From: Hericium rajendrae
Taxonomy: Eukaryota; Basidiomycota; Agaricomycetes; Russulales; Hericiaceae
Assembly (NCBI GenBank): GCA_033439255.1
Contig: CM065882.1
Span: 3,100,001 to 3,164,000 of the forward strand
DNA: 64,000 nt
Reading direction: 5' to 3'
A program made the translations under genes and the position numbers. The notes under the pieces are model-generated. The model worked only from the letters and a program-made list of their open reading frames with translations, was not told where the DNA came from and did no database searches. Shown here one piece after another: positions 46,031 to 60,262 of the stretch (position 1 is the stretch's first letter; each line of letters opens with the position of its first letter).

Positions 46031-47407
46031 AGTTCTTCGGGAATAGACGTGACGACCAGTAAGAATGTAGGGTGAGCGTCTTCCGCGATGTCGTGTGCCC
46101 GACGTTTATTATGAGAGGATTTCGAGGATGGTCAAGTACTGAAAGTACCGAACGCTTACATAAGTACTGAACGCGACGCGCGCGGATAAGTCCGGCCCGG
46201 GAGAAGTGTTGCGCGTTTGCAGACTTGTTGCTTCAAGCTTGACAAGAACCAGCACACACCCCATGGTCTCGACTACAGTATCCTACCCGTATTCTGCGGA
46301 TGGGAAACCTTGCTACGCTTCCGCTCGATCAATTGTAACAATGTCTGACGCCTTTCAGTGACAGCCTTCAAGAAATTCTTCGTAGGTTACAAGTTAACAA
46401 CATCTGTGGGATTCCTCCCCACACATCCACCTTCGTCTTGTTATTAATGATGGATCCAATCATGATATCTGGAGCTTCCGTTTCTATAATAACATCAAAG
46501 ATTCGAATGGAGATGCTGGATATCCGAAGTGCTGCGTGATTTGTTTGAGATCTATTTCATTCAATTTCCGTACGTCTCCACGGCCCTCGTTTGCCAGCAT
46601 TCCATTGACGCCTATCCTGATGCTGCGTATGCGCCTGGGTATTTGAGCTTTGGAATAGGCATTTCTTTTTCTCCGTTTGGTGATTTCCGCATCTGGTCCA
46701 TGACGCAGCAGATCATGTTGTATCAGGCGTGACGCTCAAAGAATCGCTATTCTGGGGCGCACTAGATCTCGTCTTCAACGCTTGCAGACAAAATTGGACG
46801 TCAAACCTGGCAGTTGATCTGACCGGCTCCCCGTGGAGCTGCCGACATTAAGAGTCCGTTGGTTCGATTGCAGTGATGATTGCATTTGTTTCTCGCGAGG
46901 GCTTCATCGCATACCACGACATACTTCCTCTTTTACCCCCACTCAGGGCACCCTTCCTCGCTGTTCTCTTCACTTTTATCGTAACAACATAACTGCTAGC
47001 ACGGATCTGCGGATCTTCGCGCAGAATGATGAATGATGTCAGTGGCCACCACCCTTGTTCAACTCTGGGAACCTTGATAATGACTGTTTCGATAAAGCCT
47101 TCCCATCCTCGGATTTAGGGCTATTTTCCGGGAGGTTGTATGAGCGCGACTCTTGGTCCAGCCCTTTGACGTTACTTGTCTTGTGGGACTTGATCACCTG
47201 CAAGAGATAGCAAGTTCTGGGGATGGAGTTACATTAGAAGATCGGCGGAAAGGCATTCCCGGCTGTGCACCCCGCGGATCATTTCCCGATTTTGTTCCGT
47301 GCATCGCTTATGATCGACGTTTGGACTAGGAAAGGATTGTGGAGCACATAGGCACAGGACCACAAATAGGAACCCAGGTAGCAACGCTCCGCGGAGTCAC
47401 GGACGCG
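46031..47407. other. Intergenic region, 1.4 kb
   Basis: Runs from the CCDC174 promoter to the outer retrotransposon. A plus-strand ORF (46529-46732) and the preceding stretch have some coding look, but no recognisable domain and no convincing splice pattern. It may be a gene relic. The last 5 bp (ACGCG, 47403-47407) are the left target-site duplication of the outer element. Confidence 0.4.
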
Positions 47408-47630
47408 TGGAACCGCGTGTGCGCGCAGAACACTGAGGATGCAGACAGGAACAGAAGAGGACAACAGCGTCTATTGGACGTGTCTAAGGGAGTGGTACGA
47501 CTAGAGGGCCAGAGGACGGGGTGGCGGGAAGCAAGCGTAAACGTAGATGAACCGCCAGTATAAGTAAGTAAGCTATGGAATCTGACATAACATGTACAAA
47601 TGAGCTGCCGGCTGTAACCGAAGGGTTACA
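47408..47630 (-). repeat. 3' LTR of the outer Gypsy element
   Basis: On the minus strand it starts TGTAACCCTTCGGTTACAGC (itself a small inverted repeat) and ends GGTTCCA. It matches 60040-60262 except for four positions, each C here or there versus T in a CpG context. Confidence 0.93.
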
Positions 47631-47643
47631 CTCTCCCCCATCG
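47631..47643 (-). promoter_or_regulatory. Polypurine tract of the outer element
   Basis: On the minus strand GATGGGGGAGAG lies immediately before the 3' LTR start TGTAACC, the correct position for the plus-strand primer. Confidence 0.7.
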
Positions 47644-47651
47644 AAAAAAAG

Positions 47652-50300
47652 TCAGCGTGAGTCTGGCGGTGTGCGGCGGGAGGACCGACATGTCGGAGGG
47701 GACTGGCGGGTGTCGGTGCACCGAGGAGGGGGATTCAGGGGATGCGAATGTCGGGGGGAAGGAAGAGTTTCAGTCCGAGTCAACCATCGATCTAACGCTT
47801 CACAGTCTTCGAGCTCAGAGCCTCGCAACCAGCGCATGTCTTCATCACCCCAACCAGTCCAACGTACGAGGTATTGCATGCCACGGCTGCGCCGGCATTC
47901 GTCGACGATGGAGTCGACAGTCCATTCTTCGGCGCCATCAGAGGAGACGAGCGGGCCCGGTCGTGCGAGGCGACGGGTGGGGTACTTCGTGTTGTCATTG
48001 TCATGGAAGGGGCGGAGGAGACTGGAGTGGAAGGTGGAGAATGTGTGAGGCGAGTTTGGTAAGTGAAGGGTGAAAACACTTCGCTCAGGATATGCCTTCG
48101 TGATGGTGTACGGACCATCATATCGCGGCATGAATTTTGCGACACGACGGGGATCAGCGGCCTTGAAGTCACGGCGGCGATGGAAGGTGGAGAGTAGTAC
48201 GCGGTCGCCAACGGCATAGGGAATTTCAGCACCACGGTGACGATTCGCGAAGGCGGCCTGATCGATCTTGGCCGCACAAAGGTTGTCGAGTGCATCGTGA
48301 GTTTCGGATCGCATGCGGGCAATGACGGCTTCCGCAGCAGTGGCGGAGGGGCCGAACTCGCGAGTCGCAGCATCGAGCTCATCGGGTAGGAGCGGTGGGA
48401 TCAGTCGTGGGCTACGCCCAAGGTGGAGCTGGAAGGGCGAATAGCCAGTGGAAGCATTCACAGTGTTCATAAGGTCGAAACGCACCCGGGGAAGGGCACG
48501 AACCCAACCACGTTGTTCGCGATCGACGTGGAAACGAAGGCACTGATTGACGGTTTTGTTGGTGCGTTCACTCGAGCCGTCGGTTTGCGGGTGGAATGCA
48601 GAGGACATTTTGACGTTTATGCCGGTGAGCTTGGTGAGTGCACGCCAGAAACGTGACACGAAGAGCTTGTCACGATCTGAAACGATTTCATCAGGTAAAC
48701 CATTTTCGCAGTACCAATGCTCGAAGAAGAGCGCAGCAAAGGACTCAGCGGTGGCATCCATGCGGGTGGGCAGAATGCGGATATCCGCACCCGCACGATC
48801 AGTCATGGTCACGATTGCATCGAAACCATGCTCGAGGGGAAGGGGACCAACGAAGTCGATGGCAACGCTACTGCCGCGGCCATCAGGGACAGGGAGTGGG
48901 TGAAGTGGGCCGGTGGGCTTGCAAGTCAGGGACTTGTTGCGTTGACAGTCAGGACAGGATGGGATATATCCGCCGGCAAGGTCAGCTTTCATCCCGGGCC
49001 AGTAATAGGAGTCACGTAAGGCGGCATAGGATTTGTCAGTTCCGAAATGCCCAAGGGAGTCGTGGGCGAGACGGAACAAGGTCTCGCGCACCGAGGTGGC
49101 ACGAGGGATGACAAGGCGGGGCCCGAGAAAGAGGAGGCCGTTGCGGAGAGAGGCAGATGGCGTTGAGGACAAATTCGCACGGAGACGAATACAGAATTGA
49201 TCTGTTTCGTAACCGGCAAGGATGTCCTGTAATAGAGATGCATCAGATGACAGAGGGAAGGTGGTAGGAGGCGGTGACGTAGCAGTGGGTGGAGTAGCGA
49301 CGAGAGACAGCGCTGCAACCAGTGCAGTCGGAGGAACTGGGGGGTCAGAGGGAAGGCGCCATAAGGTGGCAGAGAGCATGGACTCAGAGGCAGGAGAAGG
49401 GGAGGTGGGATCCGCTGGCAGGCGCGAGAGAGCGTCAGCGACGCAATTATCCGGACCGGGGATATACTCAATTTTGAAATCATAGTCCGCAAAGAGTTCT
49501 TGCCAGCGGAGCTGGCGGCGGGAAAGGTGTGTTTGCGTCATGAAATGCTCCAATGAGCGGTGATCAGTGCGAATAATGAACGGGGTGCCAAGAAGGTCAA
49601 CGCGCCATTTTTCAAGCGCACATTTAATCGCGAGCAGTTCTTTCTCGTGGACAGGATAGTTGAGCTCAGCCCCCTTGAATTGCATGGAATCGAAGGCAAC
49701 GGGACGCGCGGTTTCCCAGGTGGGCCCAAACGAGAGAACACCACCGGTACGCCAGTCGCTGGCATCGCAAGTGATGTAGATGTGATTATCACCGGGAGTG
49801 TCGTGGTCGATGGTGGTGAGACACTCACGGCTGACAACGATGTCCTTGATACGCTCGAACGCAACCTGATGATGCGGTAACCATCCAGGCCAGGTACGCT
49901 CAGCGTCGACAGTCGTGAGGGGGGTGAGGATACGAGTGTACTCAGCTAAGTTCGGCAGGAAGGATGAGAGATAGTGAACGAGACCCAGGAAGGATCGGGT
50001 TTCGGAGGCGGAAGATGGGACTTTCCAGTCAAGGATGCGTTCAACCTTGCTGGCGTCGGCTTCGATACCACGTTGGGAGATGGTGTGGCCAAGGAATTTG
50101 ACAGAGTCGCAGAAGAGTTGGGTTTTCTTGAGGGACATGTAGAGGTGGGCATCTCGCAGAGCTTGCAGAACGAGCGTAACATTTTTGATGTGTTCTGCAA
50201 CGGACTGTGACCATATGATAATGTCATCGAGGTAAACGTGACATATCTTTCCAATGTATTTCCGCAGCGCCGCGGTCATGCGGCGTTGATGCGTCGCGGG
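47652..50300 (-). pseudogene. Outer Gypsy pol, 3' part: RT end, RNase H, integrase, chromodomain
   Basis: This continues the polyprotein after the nested insertion. RT catalytic YLDD is followed by IIIWSQSVAEH. The RNase H start is ITCDASDWRTGGVLSFG. The integrase zinc finger has HDSLGHFGTDKSYAALRDSY and CPDC, the DDE core has VAIDFVGPLP, IVSDRDKLFVSRFW and SAFHPQTDGSSERTNK, and a chromodomain has YLVRWTGWGDEDMRW. The stop is at 47652. The frame is intact by eye. The gene is broken only by the 7.1-kb insertion at the GCGGG target site. Confidence 0.92.
50296..50300. repeat. Left target-site duplication GCGGG of the inner element
   Basis: GCGGG precedes the inner LTR at 50301 and recurs at 57401-57405 just after the other inner LTR. 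Confidence 0.95.
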
Positions 50301-50723
50301 TGTCAAGACTCGGTCGTAGACAGCAGAGAACCACCCAAGTCACCAGCGATGATGGGAGCGGGAGAGCAGAGAGCGACTAGCAGCGCAGTGACCTGTATTG
50401 GAGGTACAGTACGGTACAGACGAAATGGACAATCTAGGGAAATAGGCGAGCGACAGGGAGCCTATAAGTACTGGGACGACAATGGGAAAAGAACAATGGA
50501 CACCATAACGGGTCGAACAATAGAGTGAGAACAATGGTGGCCAAAAGGAGAACAATGGGAGGGAGAACAATAGGATGTCCCAAAGGGGAACAAGGGCATG
50601 GGTGAAGGATAGCCCCGGGTCATGTGAGGAAGTGAACATGTGATGGGGCTGCTGGAGCACATGACCGACGCGATGCCTTGATGGCAGAGAAGAAGGCGGA
50701 GAGAAATGGAGCGATCCGTGACA
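50301..50723 (-). repeat. 3' LTR of the inner element
   Basis: It starts (minus strand) TGTCACGGATCGC and ends GTCTTGACA, with 5-bp TGTCA/TGACA inverted ends. Identical to 56978-57400. It contains six GAACAA words between 50491 and 50590 on the plus strand and a TACTTATAGG TATA-like box on the minus strand near 50465. The pol frame runs about 100 bp into it. Confidence 0.95.
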
Positions 50724-53700
50724 TCACCCCCTCTCTAAGACGCACTTTCGCCTGGAGTGCGTGATGAGCATGGACGGGGTCGAGGTAGATGAGTCCACGA
50801 AGATTGGGAGCCTTGAGTGCATGCGGATGGCGGGTGTAGAAGTCGGTGATTGCACCATGGGCATTGGAAAGGGAGGTACGTGAAAGCCACTGATTTTCCG
50901 AATCAGGGTAGCCTGCCCATTTGACGAGATATTCAATGCCACGTTTGTTCCGGGTGAGACGAGCATCGAGGACAGACTCAACTTCGTACTCTTCCTCGCC
51001 CTCCACAAGGTCAGGTGGTGGTGCAGGGAAGTTGGGACCATGAGCGTCGGTTTCCTTGTAAGGGGACAACAGGGACGTGTGGAACACCGGATGGATACGC
51101 CAGGTGGGCGGTAGCTTCAGTCGATAAGAGACTGGGCCCAGGACGTCAGTGATTTCGAAAGGTCCCAGGCGTCGATCAGCAAGCTTAGCTTTGGGTCGCG
51201 TGGTTTTGATGTTCTTGCCATCGAGCCAGACCTTGTCACCAACCTGGAAGTGGATGGTGTCGTACATATGGTCCTGGTTGTTGCGCTTCATGAGATCAGC
51301 AGCTGTTTGAAGGCTGGCCTGGACCTCAGTGCGAAGTTGTTCGAGGTGACGGAAACGATCCTCGACGGCGGGTGTAGACGATGTGGGGTTGACAGTGGGG
51401 ATGGCAGTGGGAATATAGCCGAGGAGCATTTCAAATGGAGCTCGGTTAGTGGCGCTGTGGATACGGTGGTTGTGCGAGAACTCAGCGTAAGGGAGCCATT
51501 GGACCCAATCATCCTGACGGTAGTTGCAGAAGGTACGAAGGAACTGCTCGAGTTCTTGATTGACGCGTTCTGACTCGCCATCGGTCTGTGGATGATAGGC
51601 GGTGCTGAGGGAGGACTTGATACCAAGTTTGTCAAAGACGCCACGCATGACTTTGCCTGCGTACTGTGGGCCACGATCAGAGATGAGGCGTTCCCAGAGG
51701 CCGTAGTTCCGATAAATCCTGTCAAAAAGGATGTCGACTGTGCCATCACTGGTAATGGTCTCATTACAAGGAGTGAAGGAGACGTGCTTTGTAAAACGGT
51801 CGACGACCACATTGATGGAGTCATAGCCTTGGCATTCGGGGAGTTTGACGATGAAGTCCGAGGTAATGTCTTGGAAGGGACGGGTAGGGATGGCATTGGG
51901 GATTGTTTCAACATGGGGGCGGTGATTTTGAACCTTGGTGGCCTGGCAGGTAGCACAGCCATCGACATAATCACGAACGAAGACAGACATACCGGGCCAC
52001 CAGTAGTTGCGACTGAGGAGCTCATAGGTCTTGTAGCGTCCGGGGTGACCAGCCATGGGAGTGTCGTGATGCAGCTTGACGATATCTCGCCGAAGGTCCT
52101 TGTCAGCAGGGATGTAGACTTTGCCACGAAAGAGGATGAGGCCATCCTCGTAGTTCCATTCTTGGAGGTTCTTGACGAGGGAGCGAGGACCGTTGTTCAG
52201 GATCACGTCAAGGGCTTGAACGACCTCAATATCCTTGGTCTTGGCATTGCGAATGCGTTGGCGAAGATCAGCATTGCCAATGGACTTGACAGCGGCTGGA
52301 CGTGTAGCACGAATCTGGAAGTACTTGGGGTCGAGGAGGACACGATCGGAGTTGTCGTCGTCCACCCCCTCTCTATGGTCAGGTCGTCTCGACATGGCAT
52401 CTGGCCGGTGATGAATACCGGGTTTGTGGATCAAGGTGAAGTCGAAACGAGTGAGGAAGAGAGCCCAGCGAGCCTGACGACGACTCAGCTTTTGGGCAGA
52501 CTTGAAGTATTCCAGGTTCTTATGGTCGGTCCAGATCTCCACAGTATGGGGAGAGCCTTCCAGGTAGTGCCGCCAGGCTTCGAGGGCACGGATGATGGCC
52601 AGGAGTTCCTTGTCATAAATGTCGTAGTTGCGTTCAGGGGCAGTGAAGGCCTTGGAGATGTAAGCAACAGGGTGCCATTGCTCGTCCTCCCCGTGCTGGG
52701 ATAGGATACCTCCTGTGGCATAGTCTGAGGCATCGACCTCAACCAAGTAGGGTTTGGACGGGTCAGGCATGATAAGGACTGGGGACGAGGTGAACGCAGC
52801 TTTAAGAGCCTCAAAGGCATGTTGACATTCAGCAGACCAGGCCCAAGGATGGTCTTTCTTGGTAAGGTCAAACATGGGACGGGCGACTTTGGAGAAGTCC
52901 TGGATGAAGCGTCGATAGAAGTTGCCAAAGCCAACAAAGGACTGGACATCCTTGACATTACGGGGGGCAGGCCATTCAGCGATGCCTGCAACCTTGACGG
53001 GGTCCATGGCAAGCGTGTTATGGGAGACGATGAGACCGAGGAACTCAACGGAGGGCTGCTCGAAAGAGCACTTCTCTGGTTTGAGGAAGAGGTCATTGTC
53101 CTGGAGGCGTTGGAGGACCTTGCGCACAAGGTCGCGATGTTCTTCGAGGGTTTCGGTGAAAATGAGGATATCGTCCATGTAGATGACGACTTTGCCCGTG
53201 TCGATGAGATCCTTGAAAAGTTCATTCATCATTCCTTGGAACGTGGCAGGGGAGTTTGTAAGACCAAAAAACATCACCAGGGGTTCAAAGAGACCGCGGT
53301 TGGTTTTGAAGGCGGCTTTCCATTCGTCGCCCTCCTTGATGCGAACGTTGTTGTAACCCCAACGAACGTCCATCTTGGAGAAGACTTTGGCACCCTTGAG
53401 CTTGTCAACGAGTTCAGAGATGAGGGGCAGGGGATATTCATTCTTGATGGTGCCCTTGTTGAGGGTGCGATAGTCCTGGACGGGGCGTAGTTTTCCATCT
53501 TTTTTCTTGATAAAGAAGAAGGGACTTGCCATAGGGGATTTGGAAGGACGGATGTAGCCTTTTTTGACCTGGTCATCAAGGAACGAATCGAGGTCCTCCT
53601 GCTCAGTGGGAGCCATGGGATAGACCTTGCATGAACGGGGTTCAAAACCATCTTTCAGGTCGATGGCGTGATCCCAAGGGCGACGTTCAGGAAGGCGATG

Positions 53701-54051
53701 GGAGGATTCCTCATCGAAGACGGGTTGGAAATCCTGGTACTGAGGGGGAACCATCTCAGCAAAGGACTTCTCCGCAACATGGGCGGCCACACGCTCAGCC
53801 AGTTTCTGAGCATTGGTGAAAGAGCGACGGATACGGATGGTATGTTGGTAGTCTGGGTTGTCATCTGGAGGGGGTGGTGTGTCCCAGTCAGGGAGAACAC
53901 CAGCTAGGCGAAGGCCCTCTTCAACCCAGTCATCATCGACGTTAGGTCGCGGGTCATCATCCTCGGTAAACAGACATGCAGGGACTTTGGACAGGTGGAT
54001 GCGGCGAAGACGGACACCTTGGACTCGGCGAGCGGGGATCACGTATTTGGG
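50620..54051 (-). CDS. Inner Gypsy pol: RT, RNase H, integrase, chromodomain
   Basis: Entered by a -1 frameshift at 54045-54051, about 1,140 residues. RT: PMASPFFFIKKKDGKLRPVQ, KMDVRWGYNNVRIKEGDEWK and catalytic YMDDILIF. RNase H: LVEVDASDYATGGILSQHG. Integrase zinc finger: KLHHDTPMAGHPGRYK with CATC, the DDE core DITSDFIVKLPE, LISDRGPQYAGKVMRGVFD and YHPQTDGESERVNQELEQFL. The C-terminus is a chromodomain (IEYLVKWAGYPDSENQW). The stop at 50620 lies within the 3' LTR. All catalytic Asp/Glu positions are present. Confidence 0.95.
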   Translation of the reverse strand, partial: PKYVIPARRVQGVRLRRIHLSKVPACLFTEDDDPRPNVDDDWVEEGLRLAGVLPDWDTPPPPDDNPDYQHTIRIRRSFTNAQKLAERVAAHVAEKSFAEMVPPQYQDFQPVFDEESSHRLPERRPWDHAIDLKDGFEPRSCKVYPMAPTEQEDLDSFLDDQVKKGYIRPSKSPMASPFFFIKKKDGKLRPVQDYRTLNKGTIKNEYPLPLISELVDKLKGAKVFSKMDVRWGYNNVRIKEGDEWKAAFKTNRGLFEPLVMFFGLTNSPATFQGMMNELFKDLIDTGKVVIYMDDILIFTETLEEHRDLVRKVLQRLQDNDLFLKPEKCSFEQPSVEFLGLIVSHNTLAMDPVKVAGIAEWPAPRNVKDVQSFVGFGNFYRRFIQDFSKVARPMFDLTKKDHPWAWSAECQHAFEALKAAFTSSPVLIMPDPSKPYLVEVDASDYATGGILSQHGEDEQWHPVAYISKAFTAPERNYDIYDKELLAIIRALEAWRHYLEGSPHTVEIWTDHKNLEYFKSAQKLSRRQARWALFLTRFDFTLIHKPGIHHRPDAMSRRPDHREGVDDDNSDRVLLDPKYFQIRATRPAAVKSIGNADLRQRIRNAKTKDIEVVQALDVILNNGPRSLVKNLQEWNYEDGLILFRGKVYIPADKDLRRDIVKLHHDTPMAGHPGRYKTYELLSRNYWWPGMSVFVRDYVDGCATCQATKVQNHRPHVETIPNAIPTRPFQDITSDFIVKLPECQGYDSINVVVDRFTKHVSFTPCNETITSDGTVDILFDRIYRNYGLWERLISDRGPQYAGKVMRGVFDKLGIKSSLSTAYHPQTDGESERVNQELEQFLRTFCNYRQDDWVQWLPYAEFSHNHRIHSATNRAPFEMLLGYIPTAIPTVNPTSSTPAVEDRFRHLEQLRTEVQASLQTAADLMKRNNQDHMYDTIHFQVGDKVWLDGKNIKTTRPKAKLADRRLGPFEITDVLGPVSYRLKLPPTWRIHPVFHTSLLSPYKETDAHGPNFPAPPPDLVEGEEEYEVESVLDARLTRNKRGIEYLVKWAGYPDSENQWLSRTSLSNAHGAITDFYTRHPHALKAPNLRGLIYLDPVHAHHALQAKVRLREGVMSRIAPFLSAFFSAIKASRRSCAPAAPSHVHFLT
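50724..50737 (-). promoter_or_regulatory. Polypurine tract of the inner element
   Basis: On the minus strand AGAGAGGGGGTGA abuts the LTR start TGTCACGG. Confidence 0.75.
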
Positions 54052-54752
54052 AAGTGGGGCAGGAACAAATGGCGGGGGCAGTGGGAGCAATGGAGGGGGC
54101 AAGGTGGGGGGAGCAGTACAGCAGCGGTACTGAGGACTGGTGGACGAGGGGCTGATTGGCGGCGTTCTGAGCGAGTGGACAGGTTTTTGACCGGGGGCTT
54201 ATTCAGGGTGCAAGAGGGAGGGCAGCGAGTCATGTCAACACGACGAGAGACCCAATCAATTTCAGGGTTGTGTTCCTGTAACCAATCGGTCCCAAGGATA
54301 ATGTCATAGTCGCCAATATCAACGAGATAGAACTCAGCTGTCTCCTCATGGAAGGACGTCGAGTCCTTGGCGTAAATGCGGATGTTCTGGTTGACGGAAT
54401 AGCGGACCCAGCCCATGATGTTTTCGGAGTTGTCCACGTTGCGAACGGGAAAGGGTTTAGGGAGTTTCTTGAGGGGGAACTGGTGTTTCTTGGCAAACTC
54501 GGGGTGCATAATGATGCCTTCTGCACCACTATCGAGAAGTGCCTCAGCGTCGATTTGTTTCTTGATCGGGGCAGTGATAATCTTGGCCTGGAGCGTAATG
54601 GACGGTGTCTGACGGTTGGGTGTGATAGCGGACATGCGCAAAGACGATGGATACGATTGCTCACAGGGGTCGGATAGTACAGAGAAGCGATTCGACGGAT
54701 CAAAGAAATGTTTCTTGCCACCCACGGACGACGTGACCGGGGGGCGCTTTAA
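54039..54752 (-). CDS. Inner Gypsy aspartic protease domain
   Basis: Open in the -1 frame relative to gag, from the slippery site at 54752-54758 to a TGA at 54039. The retroviral-type active site is ALLDSGAEGIIMHPEF, followed by the flap-like region VDIGDYDIILGTDWLQEHNP, where ILGTDWL matches the second conserved block of Gypsy proteases. A Pro/Leu-rich tail leads to the pol junction. No ATG is needed if it is translated as a gag-protease fusion. Confidence 0.9.
   Translation of the reverse strand, partial: LKRPPVTSSVGGKKHFFDPSNRFSVLSDPCEQSYPSSLRMSAITPNRQTPSITLQAKIITAPIKKQIDAEALLDSGAEGIIMHPEFAKKHQFPLKKLPKPFPVRNVDNSENIMGWVRYSVNQNIRIYAKDSTSFHEETAEFYLVDIGDYDIILGTDWLQEHNPEIDWVSRRVDMTRCPPSCTLNKPPVKNLSTRSERRQSAPRPPVLSTAAVLLPPPCPLHCSHCPRHLFLPHFPNT
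54045..54051 (-). promoter_or_regulatory. Candidate -1 ribosomal frameshift site CCCAAAT (protease to pol)
   Basis: In the protease frame the codons read TTC-CCA-AAT-ACG-TGA, so C-CCA-AAT fits the X-XXY-YYZ slippery rule. One base back, the frame continues CCC-AAA-TAC into pol. The protease stop is one codon further on. Only a short CTC/GAG stem is visible downstream by eye. Confidence 0.7.
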
Positions 54753-54758
54753 AAACCC
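54717..54758 (-). promoter_or_regulatory. Candidate -1 ribosomal frameshift site GGGTTTT plus hairpin (gag to protease)
   Basis: The gag end reads GAG-GGT-TTT-TAA, so G-GGT-TTT (54752-54758) is a canonical X-XXY-YYZ heptamer touching the stop codon. The -1 frame continues TTA-AAG-CGC into the protease ORF. Six bases after the heptamer a bulged hairpin can form: GCCCCC (54745-54740) with GGTGGC (54722-54717), and CACG (54735-54732) with CGTG (54726-54723). This is the standard architecture of a -1 frameshift signal. Confidence 0.75.
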
Positions 54759-55738
54759 TCAACCATATCCTTTAATGCAGCCTTTGCCTCTTCCCTCTCT
54801 TCCTCGCTCAAGTCCTTCAACTGCGACGATAAGTCAGCGATGGACCTGTTGATGGCGGGGACAGCGAGGGCGATGGCTGCATCTTCTGGAGCTACTCCCG
54901 GGGCAGAGCCGGTTTCTAGCGCTCGGACACGAGGGGTTGGGGCACGGGGGTTGGAGTCGGCATTGAGGGGGCAGTCGCGGAAGCCATGGCCCTTCTGGCG
55001 GCAGCGGAAGCAACCGCCCTCACGCCTGAGGCGCTCACGGTCAGGCTCCGAGAGTTTGGACAGTGGGGCACCTGTAGCAGCGACTGTGCGGGATCGGCCA
55101 GTAGATGTGGACTGAGGGGAGCGAGTGCTCACCGGGGTGCGCCCAGTTGTAGGGCGGGGACTCTGGAACCGGGTGCGCATGAGGTAGGCAGCATTCCTGT
55201 CACGGGCCCTCGCCTTCCACTCAGCCAGGGTGGTGGGCGTGGGGTAGCTGCGCTGGCAATCATCGCGCAGGGCGCTGTTGAGGCCATGCAGGAACCAGTC
55301 GATCAGGGCCACGTCATTGTAGCCGGTGCGAGGGGCGAAGGACTCAAACTCGGTGATGTAGTCGACTACCGGGCGCGTACCCATCTGGAGGGTCTGGATA
55401 GCATGAGAGGCATCCTTGGAGTCGTCAAGGGGAGAGAAGTCCAAGTTGAAGCGAGTTCGAAGGGCGGTGAGGTTGGCGTAACGGGGAACATGAGCTGGAG
55501 ATGTTTTTGCAGCCACGAGATCGTCATCCTCAAGGATCTCCTCGACGCGCTGGGTGGCCCACTGGCCGGCGATAGGGCCCTGGCAGAGGTCGAGGAAGAG
55601 GGAGATCTGGGCGGTATCATCTTTATACCGGGTAGAGTTGGCGCGAAGGAATAAGCGAATACGCAGCTGGAATTCCTTGGACTTGGAACGATCTCCCTCA
55701 AAGGGAGCAGGTTTGACGCCGATCTCAGGGTTGGACAT
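54749..55738 (-). CDS. Inner Gypsy gag (capsid and zinc knuckle)
   Basis: The first ATG gives MSNPEIGVKPAPFEGDRSKS. The retrotransposon gag domain follows (FQLRIRLFLRANSTRYKDD, IQTLQMGTRPVVDYITEFE), then a CCHC zinc knuckle CFRCRQKGHGFRDC and an acidic helical end stopping at 54749. The same frame is open upstream to about 56413 (LTIDPTDPRFQTTEPYPLG and a Pro-rich linker) without an ATG. A CTAG acceptor lies at its edge, so a spliced 5' extension is plausible. Confidence 0.9.
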   Translation of the reverse strand: MSNPEIGVKPAPFEGDRSKSKEFQLRIRLFLRANSTRYKDDTAQISLFLDLCQGPIAGQWATQRVEEILEDDDLVAAKTSPAHVPRYANLTALRTRFNLDFSPLDDSKDASHAIQTLQMGTRPVVDYITEFESFAPRTGYNDVALIDWFLHGLNSALRDDCQRSYPTPTTLAEWKARARDRNAAYLMRTRFQSPRPTTGRTPVSTRSPQSTSTGRSRTVAATGAPLSKLSEPDRERLRREGGCFRCRQKGHGFRDCPLNADSNPRAPTPRVRALETGSAPGVAPEDAAIALAVPAINRSIADLSSQLKDLSEEEREEAKAALKDMVEGF

Positions 55739-56977
55739 GTCGATGGATGGCTGAACAGGGGGGGCTGTGGCAATGGTTGGTTTGACGTTGACGGTGGATG
55801 TCGATGCAACAGCGGCAACGGGTGGAGCAGGTGAGGGGACTGGTACTGGGGTAGGCGTCGAAACAGGTGGTGGTGGTGGGGCCCGAAGGGTATCGAGGCG
55901 GGTAGTTTGTTGCTGAGCGAGATTCTCTATAACTGCTTGAGAGAGTGCGAGTTCTGCAGTGGTTAAGAAGAGGGTACTGGCCTGCCAAAACCACAGGTCA
56001 CTTTCTTCTACGAGGCTGGGTCTCCAACTGACTACAAGCCGATTGGTGTCGGAGCGGTATGCGTAGTAGTTGTTGGTTACCGGGTTGAAGGTAATACCTG
56101 GGGGAACAACAAGTGGGGTGGTGCGAGCAGGGGGAGAATCTGCACTAGGAAGGGCAACAGTGGGAAGCGGCGGGGTAGCGGGGTGTTGGCGGCGGTGTTC
56201 TGTAGCTGCGACGTCAAAGTCGTTAAGCTCGAGGTCTGCCTGGTCGTCACGATCAGCGAAGTACCACTGTGCGGGACCGTCGTCGTCCTCGTCCGGAGTG
56301 ACGAAGTCTATTCGAACGATGCCAGAAAGGGTGTAGATGAAGTATTCGTCGAGCGAGGCAAAGACGCCGAGTGGGTATGGTTCTGTGGTCTGGAAACGGG
56401 GGTCGGTGGGATCAATGGTGAGGTCTAGAAGAAGTCAGCCGCGACTGGGCGACGACCAAGAGCACGAGGGTACAGGGGGTCCGAGTACGGGTTTCTGAGG
56501 AATCGGTGGCCGAGGCGTTCTCTGGCCCACACAGGCTCAGGCGAGGGTTCGGGGGTGAAGAGACCTAGTGTGCAAAAGGGGAACGAGGTCGATGGTAGGA
56601 TACTTGCAGGGGATCCTCGGTTGGGTTGGCGACAGTGGTAAGCGATATCCGAGGCACCGAACGTGAATTCTTGCAAGTCGACGTCAAAGGAAACTCGAAT
56701 TCGAACGTATAAGGCAATGGAGATAGCACCTGCACGTGGTTTCCACGACCTCAATCGAAACCAAACTCCTTCGGCTTCCCAACGCTTCACAGCACAATAG
56801 CGGAGGAGGGGGATGAGTGCACTGCCCTCGATGGTGTTGGCGATGGGAAAGGGGAGATGAGGTTGATGGAATGGATGTCGGGATTCGGTGAAGATGTCGG
56901 CGGTGAAGGGTTCAAAGAAGAAAGGTATGATGGGCGATAGTAGGGAGGTGAGGCGGGTGTATGAGAGATTGTCCAGG
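55739..56977 (-). other. Inner element 5' leader and possible spliced gag extension
   Basis: 1.24 kb between the 5' LTR and the gag ATG. From 56790 a frame reads MKRWEAEGVWFRLRSWKPRA and stops at TAG (about 56425). That TAG is also a good splice acceptor (CTTCTTCTAG) opening the gag-extension frame. A donor-like GTATCC lies near 56600. The primer-binding region just inside the LTR reads CCTGGACAATCTCTC on the minus strand; its tRNA is not identified. Confidence 0.55.
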
Positions 56978-57400
56978 TGTCAAGACTCGGTCGTAGACAG
57001 CAGAGAACCACCCAAGTCACCAGCGATGATGGGAGCGGGAGAGCAGAGAGCGACTAGCAGCGCAGTGACCTGTATTGGAGGTACAGTACGGTACAGACGA
57101 AATGGACAATCTAGGGAAATAGGCGAGCGACAGGGAGCCTATAAGTACTGGGACGACAATGGGAAAAGAACAATGGACACCATAACGGGTCGAACAATAG
57201 AGTGAGAACAATGGTGGCCAAAAGGAGAACAATGGGAGGGAGAACAATAGGATGTCCCAAAGGGGAACAAGGGCATGGGTGAAGGATAGCCCCGGGTCAT
57301 GTGAGGAAGTGAACATGTGATGGGGCTGCTGGAGCACATGACCGACGCGATGCCTTGATGGCAGAGAAGAAGGCGGAGAGAAATGGAGCGATCCGTGACA
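56978..57400 (-). repeat. 5' LTR of the inner element
   Basis: 423 bp, no difference from 50301-50723 found when read side by side. It is followed by the right GCGGG duplication (57401-57405). Confidence 0.95.
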
Positions 57401-59580
57401 GCGGGGGCATTGCAGCCACCCATGGGCATGACGGGCCACTCATACATGCCAAAGGGAGTGGTGACGGCAGTAAGATGGACATCATCAGGATGAACGCGAG
57501 TTTGAAAAAAGGAATTGGTCATATCTAACTTAGCCCAAATCTTACCCTTCGCGCAGTTGGCAAGGATGTCATCGACGCGCGGAAGAGGAAAGCGATCGGG
57601 GACCGTGTTGTCGTTGATAATACGGTAGTCATTGATCCAACGAGGAGGAACAGTCGGATCGGCCTTGGGGATAATGAAAGACGGCGATGCATGGGAGCTT
57701 GAGGATGGGTGAATGCGCCCGGCGTCGAGGTGTTGTTGGATGAGGTCCTGCCAAGCTTGGCGATACTTACGAGGGCAGCCATATGTACATGATGCAATGA
57801 CCTTCTGTGGGTCCTTGAGGATGATGCGGTGGTAGACGTCAGTAGGAAGGTTGTCTACATGGGGAATATCGTCAGGAAAATGGTCCGCAAATTTGGCCTT
57901 TAGCCTGCGGTCGAGCTCAGCAAGCTGGTCGGCATGCGCGAGGGCCCAAATGCGTTCAGCGACTGCAGCGATAAGGACGCGTGGGTTCGCAGCGGGAGAA
58001 GTGCGCTCGACCAGGGCACGCTGACTGAGCAATCGTGATCCAAGATCAGCGATAACAGCAGTGCGTGTGGAGAGAACCTGACGAAATCCAGGCGTGAGAC
58101 GAACAGGAGCCTCGGGAGGTGTAAAACGATCAGGATGCAACAAATCATAATTCGTGCCTTTGGCAACAATGGAACGAAGTTCGGGATCGATGACAAGAGA
58201 GTTCGAGGCGAGAAAAGGAAGTCCGAGAATGATAGGCAGTGCGAGAGAGTCCGGGGCCACGAGGGCACGTACGGTACGAGACTGGAACTCGGAATCATGC
58301 GAACGACAGGAGAGCTTCACCCAATGGGTGGCGACAGACGAGGACGAAGCGAGTGAATCAGGCGAATCGGGGGAATCTATAGTGCAGTCCATCTCCCCCC
58401 CACTAAAGGCAGAACCCAGCGAAATGGGTGACGGCAGCACGCGGCGACGAAGCCCGAGTTGGGAGATGAGGCTGTCGCGGATTAAGACGAACTGTGATCC
58501 ATCATCAATCAGACCCTGGGCTGTAACTGACTCATCGACAGCAGGGCCATCGAGGAGGCAGTTCCAGATCAGGCTCTCTGCGTGCAATGGAGGGAGAGGG
58601 ACATTGACGCACTGGAACTCGTCATCAGAGTCCGTGCCATTACCGATAACGGCAGATGGGTCTTCCGTCATTGGAAGGACGGCGGCAACACGGCCGGAGG
58701 ACGGCGTACGTGAAGATGTCGCGGGTTTGCGACGATCGCGAGCAGCAATGGCAGAAGCTTCAGTGAGGGCCTTGTAGGTCTCAGGTTTGGGGAACCCGAC
58801 CTCGCATGCCGAGGATATGTGTCCCGCATAGAAGCGGCGACACTTGAAACATCCCTCGTGCGCACGGAGAAGGGATTTGTCTGTGTCCGTGAGACGAGGC
58901 AGGGAAGGCGTCGAACGAGACGCTGATGAGGAATTTGCGGCAGCAGGGCGCGCAGAAGAGGGGCGTGCAGCAGGGGCACGTGCAGCTGAGAGACGTTCAG
59001 CCTCGAGGCGGATGCGCTCGAGGCGAAGCATGCGGCGGTCATCAAGCTGCTTGACAGCGAGAGACCACTCGCGGAGCGAGAGAGACGGCGGAAGGTATTC
59101 GGACCGCACGTCAGTCATCAGCTCTTCGCAGAGGCCCGAAGCGAGCTTGCGACAGAGTGCGGCATCGTCAAGGTGTGAGTCAGTGCCGTCGAGGAGAGAA
59201 TTCAATGAGGCGACCTCGATGAACCAGGAATAGAAGTCACATTTCGCGTTCTGGCGGGCATTGAGGAGCTCGTTGGAGAGACGGACCTCCCAATTGGGCT
59301 CCATCCAAACCTTCATCTCCTCGACGAAATCAGAGAAGGGAAGCGTCGTGAGGCGGGGCTGGTCGGTGGCAAACCAGGATTGGATGCGGTTGTCCTGGAA
59401 ACCCCAGGCAACAACCTGTACCTGTACGTCGTCTGCAACATTCTTGTGGTAGAAGTAGGCACGGCATCCACGCTCCCACTGGCGGAGAGCTTCCGGGGTC
59501 AGGTCGCCAGGAGTGAGCATGGGTGCCTTGGTCATGGAGGATTGTTCAACCGTGGCGGTCGAGGAGTTGGATGTCGGCAT
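57401..59580 (-). pseudogene. Outer Gypsy gag, protease and N-terminal RT
   Basis: The first ATG in frame at 59580 gives MPTSNSSTATVEQSSMTKAP. The frame is open upstream into the 5' LTR but without an ATG. Gag domain: WERGCRAYFYHKNVADDVQV and LNARQNAKCDFYSWFIEVAS. Zinc-knuckle-like segment CFKCRRFYAGHISSAC. Protease region LIDDGSQFVLIRDSLISQLG. RT start FIIPKADPTVPPRWINDYR and KIWAKLDMTNSFFQTRV. The frame ends abruptly at GGCNAPA, where the inner element is inserted. It is colinear and in phase with 50300-47652 once one GCGGG copy is discounted. Confidence 0.92.
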
Positions 59581-60039
59581 GGTGGGGAGACGGGGCAGTG
59601 CGGCACGAGAAAGATGAGAGAGGGAAACAGAGGAAGAAGAGCCAGAAGAAGAGCCAGAAGAAGAGTAACGGCGGCGGGGAAAGACTTGAGATTTTAACGA
59701 AACAGGAGAAGTAACGAGCGAGACAGTGTCCTTGGGTGGCGGGGTCGGCGGCAAGGGTGTGTTGAGCGCTTCGAGGCAGACAGAAGATGGAGAGACGGGA
59801 GACGGAACAGGGCTCGGAGGTCGATGTGGGTCGGTTGTATTGTCGACGACATCAGAGACAGATGTGTCGGGCAGCGTTGAGATTGATGAGAGACTGGCAG
59901 ACAGAGGAGGTAGCGAAGCAGAGCGGCGGGATGTGTTGACAGAGATGTTGAACGGAGCTGCCGTGCGCGTGCGCGAGCGGGTCTGAGGTGGCGATGGCGG
60001 CAGTTTGAAAGACTGAGGTTGTCGATCTTCAAAAAAAAG

Positions 60040-60262
60040 TGGAACTGCGTGTGCGCGCAGAACACTGAGGATGCAGACAGGAACAGAAGAGGACAACAGC
60101 GTCTATTGGACGTGTCTAAGGGAGCGGTACGACTAGAGGGCCAGAGGACGGGGTGGCGGGAAGCAAGCGTAAATGTAGATGAACTGCCAGTATAAGTAAG
60201 TAAGCTATGGAATCTGACATAACATGTACAAATGAGCTGCCGGCTGTAACCGAAGGGTTACA
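60040..60262 (-). repeat. 5' LTR of the outer Gypsy element
   Basis: 223 bp. Against the left copy it differs at four sites: ACTGCG/ACCGCG, AGCGG/AGTGG, AATGTA/AACGTA and ACTGCC/ACCGCC. Each is CpG in one copy and TpG in the other. The flank ATGCG (60263-60267) is the right target duplication. Confidence 0.93.

What the first reader, a model, noticed from the sequence alone, without database searches (positions are those of the whole stretch)
54039..54758. Two successive canonical -1 frameshift heptamers in one fungal Gypsy element
The inner chromovirus places gag, protease and pol in three different frames. At each junction a perfect X-XXY-YYZ heptamer in the zero frame lies at or one codon before the stop: G-GGT-TTT directly before TAA (54752-54758), and C-CCA-AAT one codon before TGA (54045-54051). 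In both cases the -1 frame is the open frame of the next domain. The first site has a bulged hairpin starting six bases downstream. A gag/pro/pol series with two -1 shifts is known from some retroviruses (for example the betaretroviral layout). Ty3/Gypsy elements normally use one frame or a single shift, so this would be unusual.
Basis: partly seen in the sequence, partly recalled or inferred. Interest (0 to 1): 0.78.

Follow-up and report, generated by a model that had tools for sequence, protein, structure and literature searches.

The report
One real frameshift, one broken copy
The fungal jumping gene has one ordinary, probable ribosomal frameshift between its first two genes; the second, surprising one appears in copies whose recorded sequence is one letter short, while sister copies read straight through.

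Summary
The two junctions are not alike. The first heptamer fits the rule in all 50 copies aligned from the same genome, in a 10-nt overlap where chance gives one in about 0.3-0.7% of cases. The protease/pol shift is not a design feature: 20 of 150 scored genome matches run protease and pol through as one 1379-aa frame, and one was read directly. The window copy differs by a C-run one base shorter. That short run occurs at 27 of 96 matching sites, is scattered over the copy tree, and separates two copies identical over 1189 other columns. CCCAAAT exists in the one-frame copies as plain codons (CCC AAA TAC) and is absent from the three most diverged of the 50. The closest public relatives (67% identical) also carry protease and pol in one ORF. 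So this is an ordinary chromovirus with one probable -1 gag/pro-pol shift, published as the predominant mode for Tf1/sushi elements outside fission yeasts, plus a recurrent homopolymer contraction or assembly error. A two-shift layout is not supported.

The parts
50301..57400 (-). Inner Ty3/Gypsy chromovirus (7100 bp) with two 423-bp LTRs and the 5-bp target duplication CCCGC; inserted in the RT-coding frame of an outer Gypsy element
   Evidence: LTR ends TGTCAC...TTGACA and flanks; duplication and open outer frame across the empty site
56978..57400 (-). 5' LTR
   Evidence: a 300-nt stretch is 100% identical to the 3' LTR
50301..50723 (-). 3' LTR; about 34 codons at the end of the pol ORF (to 50620) lie in it
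54749..56434 (-). gag ORF, 561 aa stop to stop, Retrotrans_gag
54752..54758 (-). G-GGT-TTT slippery heptamer directly before the gag TAA; probable -1 shift into protease-pol
   Evidence: GGGTTTT in 49 of 50 aligned copies, GGGTTTC in 1; with GGG and the flanks fixed by the pattern, the stretch between is TTTTT at the 100 listed of 109 genome sites; chance 0.3-0.7%
54039..54758 (-). Protease ORF of this copy (239 aa). Its last ~20 codons, after the short C-run, are out of the family's pro-pol frame
   Evidence: about 100 of the other 129 scored genome matches end at residue ~221-228 of this ORF
54095..54099 (-). C-run one base shorter than in the one-frame sister copies: the cause of the protease/pol frame break
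   Evidence: 5-nt run at 27 of 96 exact genome sites, 6-nt stretch at 69, no other length between 3 and 9; alignments
54045..54051 (-). CCCAAAT: ordinary codons CCC AAA TAC in one-frame copies; reads C-CCA-AAT where one upstream base is missing
   Evidence: Offset 0 from the protease frame in 23 of 23 copies with the longer run, offset 2 in 20 of 26 with the shorter run and offset 1 in 6; CCCAAAT in 46 of 50 copies, lost in the three most diverged and in one short-run copy
50620..54198 (-). pol ORF of this copy (RT, RNase H, integrase, SH3_Tf2-1, chromodomain), 1192 aa, with a 160-nt overlap with the protease ORF

Best explanation
The inner element is a high-copy fungal chromovirus whose design is gag, a single -1 ribosomal frameshift at G-GGT-TTT before the gag stop, then protease-pol as one long frame. 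The window copy (and about a quarter of the sites readable at that spot) is recorded with one C fewer in a C-run between protease and RT. This puts pol out of frame and makes an ordinary CCC AAA T coding stretch look like a second slippery site. Shown: frames, heptamers, copy comparison, run-length counts. Inferred: that ribosomes shift at the first site, and (from trees) that the short run arose repeatedly. Not decided: whether the short run is a real homopolymer contraction or an assembly error.
For:: of 150 scored matches (279 candidates), 21 carry the full 239-aa protease ORF; 20 rows show a 1379-aa open frame without a stop; one such copy, read directly, is a single 1379-aa frame holding DSGA, YMDD, HPQTDG and the chromodomain motif, and gag, open for at least 502 codons upstream, ends at the same heptamer and TAA; the frame difference is the C-run; protease frame and CCC AAA coincide in 23 of 23 copies with the longer run; 27 short against 69 long, no other length; 12 changes of run length on a tree with 49 scored copies (at least 6 forced by well-supported branches); a short and a long copy are identical over 1189 other columns; one clade of short-run copies rejected on 30 copies (p-AU 5e-8). 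P0001 (1331 aa) and P0002 (1347 aa), 67% identical, list protease and pol domains but no gag domain in one ORF. PMC10085805 (passages seen) says Tf1/sushi elements of non-fission-yeast species predominantly use -1 shifting at the Gag-Pol junction.
Against: No translation data exist here for either site. The downstream hairpin at the first site is not more stable than shuffles, and 10 of 50 copies break at least one of its pairs. The copies are young, so the constancy of the first heptamer is only moderate evidence of constraint. More distant listed relatives P0045 and P0086 carry a gag domain in the same ORF as pol, so the gag shift is not universal among relatives. The short run is commoner (27 of 96) than losses at other runs of six or more: 3 of 62 at T6 53271, 8 of 100 listed at A6 53505, 3 of 46 at C6 54111 (all in copies picked for a further loss), 0 of 48 at C6 54744, 0 of 22 at C7 55764; uniform noise does not explain that. 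11 of 20 full-length short-run copies keep pol fully open from CCCAAAT on.
Confidence: 0.9

Rival explanations
1. One reading: gag, protease and pol are expressed through two programmed -1 shifts, as in some retroviruses.
For: Both heptamers are in the correct register in this copy; 21 of 50 aligned copies have the second site in that register, 20 of them with CCCAAAT intact (the sample favours such copies); 11 of 20 full-length short-run copies keep pol open.
Against: One-frame sister copies, one-ORF protease-pol in the closest relatives, second heptamer absent from the three most diverged copies and from one short-run copy, repeated changes of the run on the tree, no structure beyond chance downstream (z +1.26 and -0.32), and a chance heptamer in that overlap is not rare.
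Confidence: 0.04
2. Sub-case of the best explanation: the short C-run is an assembly error, so the window copy is really one-frame in the cell.
For: Single-base losses recur at homopolymers in unrelated copies, while single-base gains were seen at one gag column and at 53768, leaving aside L010, L011 and L026, whose loci hold other insertions or rearrangements; otherwise identical copies differ only in the run; a conserved Cpn60_TCP1-family host gene has a 1-nt frame break near C7:1921330.
Against: Other runs as long or longer show few or no changes, and the short run is weakly clustered on the tree (12 changes against a shuffled mean of 16.5; 5 of 500 shuffles as low). The host-gene break is a gained base, not a lost one; of the two suspicious places fetched, the other (L072) is compatible with an intron.
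Confidence: 0.45
3. Sub-case of the best explanation: the short C-run is real. Slippage during reverse transcription or replication recurrently removes a base, and such copies still spread, supplied in trans by one-frame copies.
For: Rate outlier among runs and weak clustering; other open-frame lengths also recur among broken copies (494, 615, 264-270, 244 aa).
Against: Run-length changes without accompanying substitutions are equally expected from base-calling error.
Confidence: 0.5

Closest known systems
Fungal Tf1/sushi-type chromoviruses with -1 gag-pol shifting (PMC10085805, passages seen; grasshopper is stated there to use -1; marY1 and MAGGY are listed in the same legend, their mode not seen by me)
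   Same: Domain order, chromodomain, SH3_Tf2-1 domain, gag separate from protease-pol, a -1 shift inferred at the gag end
   Different: Nothing essential seen; clade placement was not tested by a tree here
S. cerevisiae Ty3 (PDB 7q5b chain A)
   Same: Best sequence match among solved structures (E 3.9e-123)
   Different: Ty3 frameshifting is described as mechanistically quite distinct (PMC5009743 passage); this element has a classical tandem -1 heptamer
Retroviruses with two -1 shifts (gag/pro/pol; MMTV-like layout recalled, two shifts in certain retroviruses stated in PMC5009743)
   Same: The window copy has the same frame arrangement
   Different: Sister copies and the closest relatives have pro and pol in one frame

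Membership tests
Ty3/Gypsy chromovirus | LTRs, 5-bp target duplication, order PR-RT-RH-IN-chromodomain | tested here: met
Tf1/sushi clade | Clade membership in an RT/IN phylogeny | not tested
   Only the SH3_Tf2-1 and Chromo domains and source names of some relatives such as 'tf2'
Programmed -1 frameshift at gag/pro-pol | X-XXY-YYZ in the gag frame inside the gag/pro overlap | tested here: met
   50 of 50 aligned copies fit the rule (49 GGGTTTT, 1 GGGTTTC)
Programmed -1 frameshift at gag/pro-pol | Downstream stimulatory structure | tested here: inconclusive
   MFE hairpin present, z -0.56 / -0.98; 10 of 50 copies break a pair; pseudoknots not tested
Programmed -1 frameshift at gag/pro-pol | Measured shifting | not testable with these tools
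   needs an assay
Two-shift retroviral layout | Protease in a frame of its own across the family | tested here: not met
   1379-aa pro-pol frame in 20 of 150 scored matches, one read directly; relatives P0001 and P0002
Two-shift retroviral layout | Second heptamer kept in register | tested here: not met
   In register in 21 of 50 copies, 20 of them with CCCAAAT intact, in a sample chosen in favour of them; CCCAAAT missing in 4 of 50 including the three most diverged

The most novel reading that the evidence does not exclude
The short C-run is real, and copies that carry it spread because CCCAAAT, lying by luck just before the new stop, lets a small share of ribosomes slip back into pol: a young 'compensatory' double-shift lineage arising repeatedly inside a one-shift family.
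Probability: 0.05. Interest if true: 0.5.

Novelty: new member of a known kind. Interest (0 to 1): 0.12.

Why it matters
It removes a claimed exception to how Gypsy elements express their genes, and shows that in high-copy elements a second 'slippery site' must be checked against sister copies before it is believed. If the compensatory reading were true, it would be a natural case of how a two-shift layout could begin.

Tried and rejected
Two-shift design: rejected on one-frame copies and relatives. A single origin of the short run: rejected on 30 copies (p-AU 5e-8, 12 changes, at least 6 of them forced by well-supported branches; most inner branches are weakly supported). Uniform homopolymer noise as the whole story: weakened by uneven rates. 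Stimulatory structure as proof of the first shift: not obtained. Relatives in IMG/VR viral contigs: no match. Plasmid collection: no match. A search with P0010 for other Gypsy families of this genome scored 34 of 574 candidates, all at places of this family as judged by position, so conservation of the first heptamer beyond this family was not tested at DNA level.

Sampling limits. Rows are ranked by match to the window's own protease ORF, so short-run copies head the list. Seven further rows reach residue 239: two partial ones (both in the short-run list) and five with stops inside, which I did not examine. L051-L056 were picked because they have the short run with another ORF length; L022-L030 and L057-L070 because they are not of the 239-aa class. 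The pattern counts are free of that choice but need exact flanks; fixes the GGG of the heptamer in its pattern. Searches listed 100 of 108 and 100 of 109 sites. One search listed the best 120 of 5805 proteins.

Literature was looked at narrowly: listings; passages of PMC5009743, PMC3248453 (the word frameshift does not occur) and PMC10085805. No listed title was a report of a two-shift Gypsy element; that is not proof that none exists.

Full report
What is there. The inner element of the window runs on the minus strand from 57400 to 50301, with 423-bp LTRs (TGTCAC...TTGACA), a 5-bp target duplication (CCCGC), and an insertion point inside the reading frame of an outer Gypsy element. Pfam domains confirm a chromovirus: gag, aspartyl protease, RT, RNase H, integrase, SH3_Tf2-1, chromodomain.

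Sister copies decide the question. A search of the window's own genome (46.8 Mb, 19 contigs) with the protease ORF gave 150 scored matches from 279 candidates. Twenty-one have the full 239-aa protease ORF of the window. About 100 of the other 129 match only to residue ~221-228, where the query leaves the frame of those copies; 20 rows show a 1379-aa open frame without a stop. Many other copies are broken elsewhere. One of the 20 was read directly: a single 1379-aa frame holds the protease, RT, integrase and chromodomain motifs, while gag, open for at least 502 codons in the fetched stretch, ends at the same GGGTTTT TAA in another frame.

The cause of the difference. In alignments, 20 of the 21 (L001-L020) lack one base of a C-run at window 54099-54095, and the other (L021) lacks a base of a C-run at 54147. 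A pattern search free of that ranking found 96 exact sites: 27 with a five-base run and 69 with a six-base stretch, none with another length from 3 to 9. With the longer run, CCCAAAT is read as CCC AAA T.. in the protease-pol frame in 23 of 23 copies; with the shorter it falls in the C-CCA-AAT register in 20 of 26, and in the third frame in the 6 that carry a further loss. The second 'heptamer' is therefore coding sequence of the one-frame copies. It is missing (TCCAAAT or TTCAAAT) in L068-L070, the three most diverged of the 50, and in one short-run copy, L012.

The short run recurs. On a tree of 50 partial copies (L021 unscored) the run changes 12 times, at least 6 of them forced by well-supported branches, and a short-run and a long-run copy are identical over all 1189 other columns. 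On a 30-copy tree a single clade of short-run copies is rejected (p-AU 5e-8). There is weak clustering (5 of 500 shuffles as low), so some inheritance is likely too. Losses also occur at T6 53271 (3 of 62), A6 53505 (8 of 100 listed of 108) and C6 54111 (3 of 46, in copies picked for a further loss), but not at C6 54744 (0 of 48) or C7 55764 (0 of 22). The site is an outlier in rate. Assembly error is possible: a conserved host chaperonin-family gene has a 1-nt frame break, though there a base is gained. Real contraction is equally possible. I could not decide, and neither makes a programmed shift.

The first junction is different. The heptamer fits the X-XXY-YYZ rule in 50 of 50 aligned copies (one has GGGTTTC). 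At 109 genome sites whose pattern fixed the flanks and GGG but allowed any 2-8 bases after it, the 100 listed all read TTTTT. The two frames overlap by only 10 nt, where a chance heptamer has a probability of 0.3-0.7%; in the pro/pol overlap it is 7-18% by ORF density, and 21-56% of codon shuffles hold one. The downstream hairpin exists as MFE fold but is not unusual, and 10 of 50 copies break at least one of its pairs, so it adds little.

Relatives and literature. The two best-scoring public proteins (P0001 and P0002, 67% identical) have protease and pol in one ORF with no gag domain listed, the same layout as the one-frame copies; some more distant ones (P0045, P0086) also include gag in that ORF. 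The top relative with a species name, a partial gene model 80% identical over 65% of the query, is from Dentipellis fragilis, Russulales. A review states that many animal LTR elements have pol in the -1 frame, many with classical heptamers, that in fungi the proportion of +1 to -1 is less skewed, and that certain retroviruses use two -1 shifts (PMC5009743, passages). A fission-yeast genome paper states that Tf1/sushi elements of non-fission-yeast species predominantly use programmed -1 shifting at the Gag-Pol junction (PMC10085805, passages). The first junction is therefore the expected mechanism for such an element.

Verdict. One ordinary, probable -1 gag/pro-pol shift, and one frame break peculiar to copies with a missing base. 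The remaining surprising possibility is that short-run copies are real and partly rescued by CCCAAAT; 11 of 20 full-length short-run copies keep pol open downstream (gag is shortened to 224-499 codons in 4 of those 11), but open pol is equally expected if the break is recent or technical.

Noticed in passing
window 47407-60262: An outer Gypsy element is interrupted by the inner one. Its upstream part is one 987-aa open frame with RVT_1 from residue 811 (no Pfam gag match), and joining short flanks at the CCCGC duplication keeps one frame open, so an element with no shift in that part and a shifted one are nested.
   Followed up: partly
L071 (G000:C7:1921000-1921600), about C7:1921330: A conserved Cpn60_TCP1-family host gene shows a 1-nt frame break (a gained base) without room for an intron, probably an assembly error.
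   Followed up: partly
window 50620-50723: The pol ORF runs about 34 codons into the 3' LTR.
   Followed up: no
G000 matches; L022: Broken pro-pol copies fall into recurrent open-frame lengths (494, 615, 509, 264-270, 244 aa), so several shared frame breaks exist; L022 (244 aa) shows a C-to-T change near 54026 that makes a stop.
   Followed up: partly
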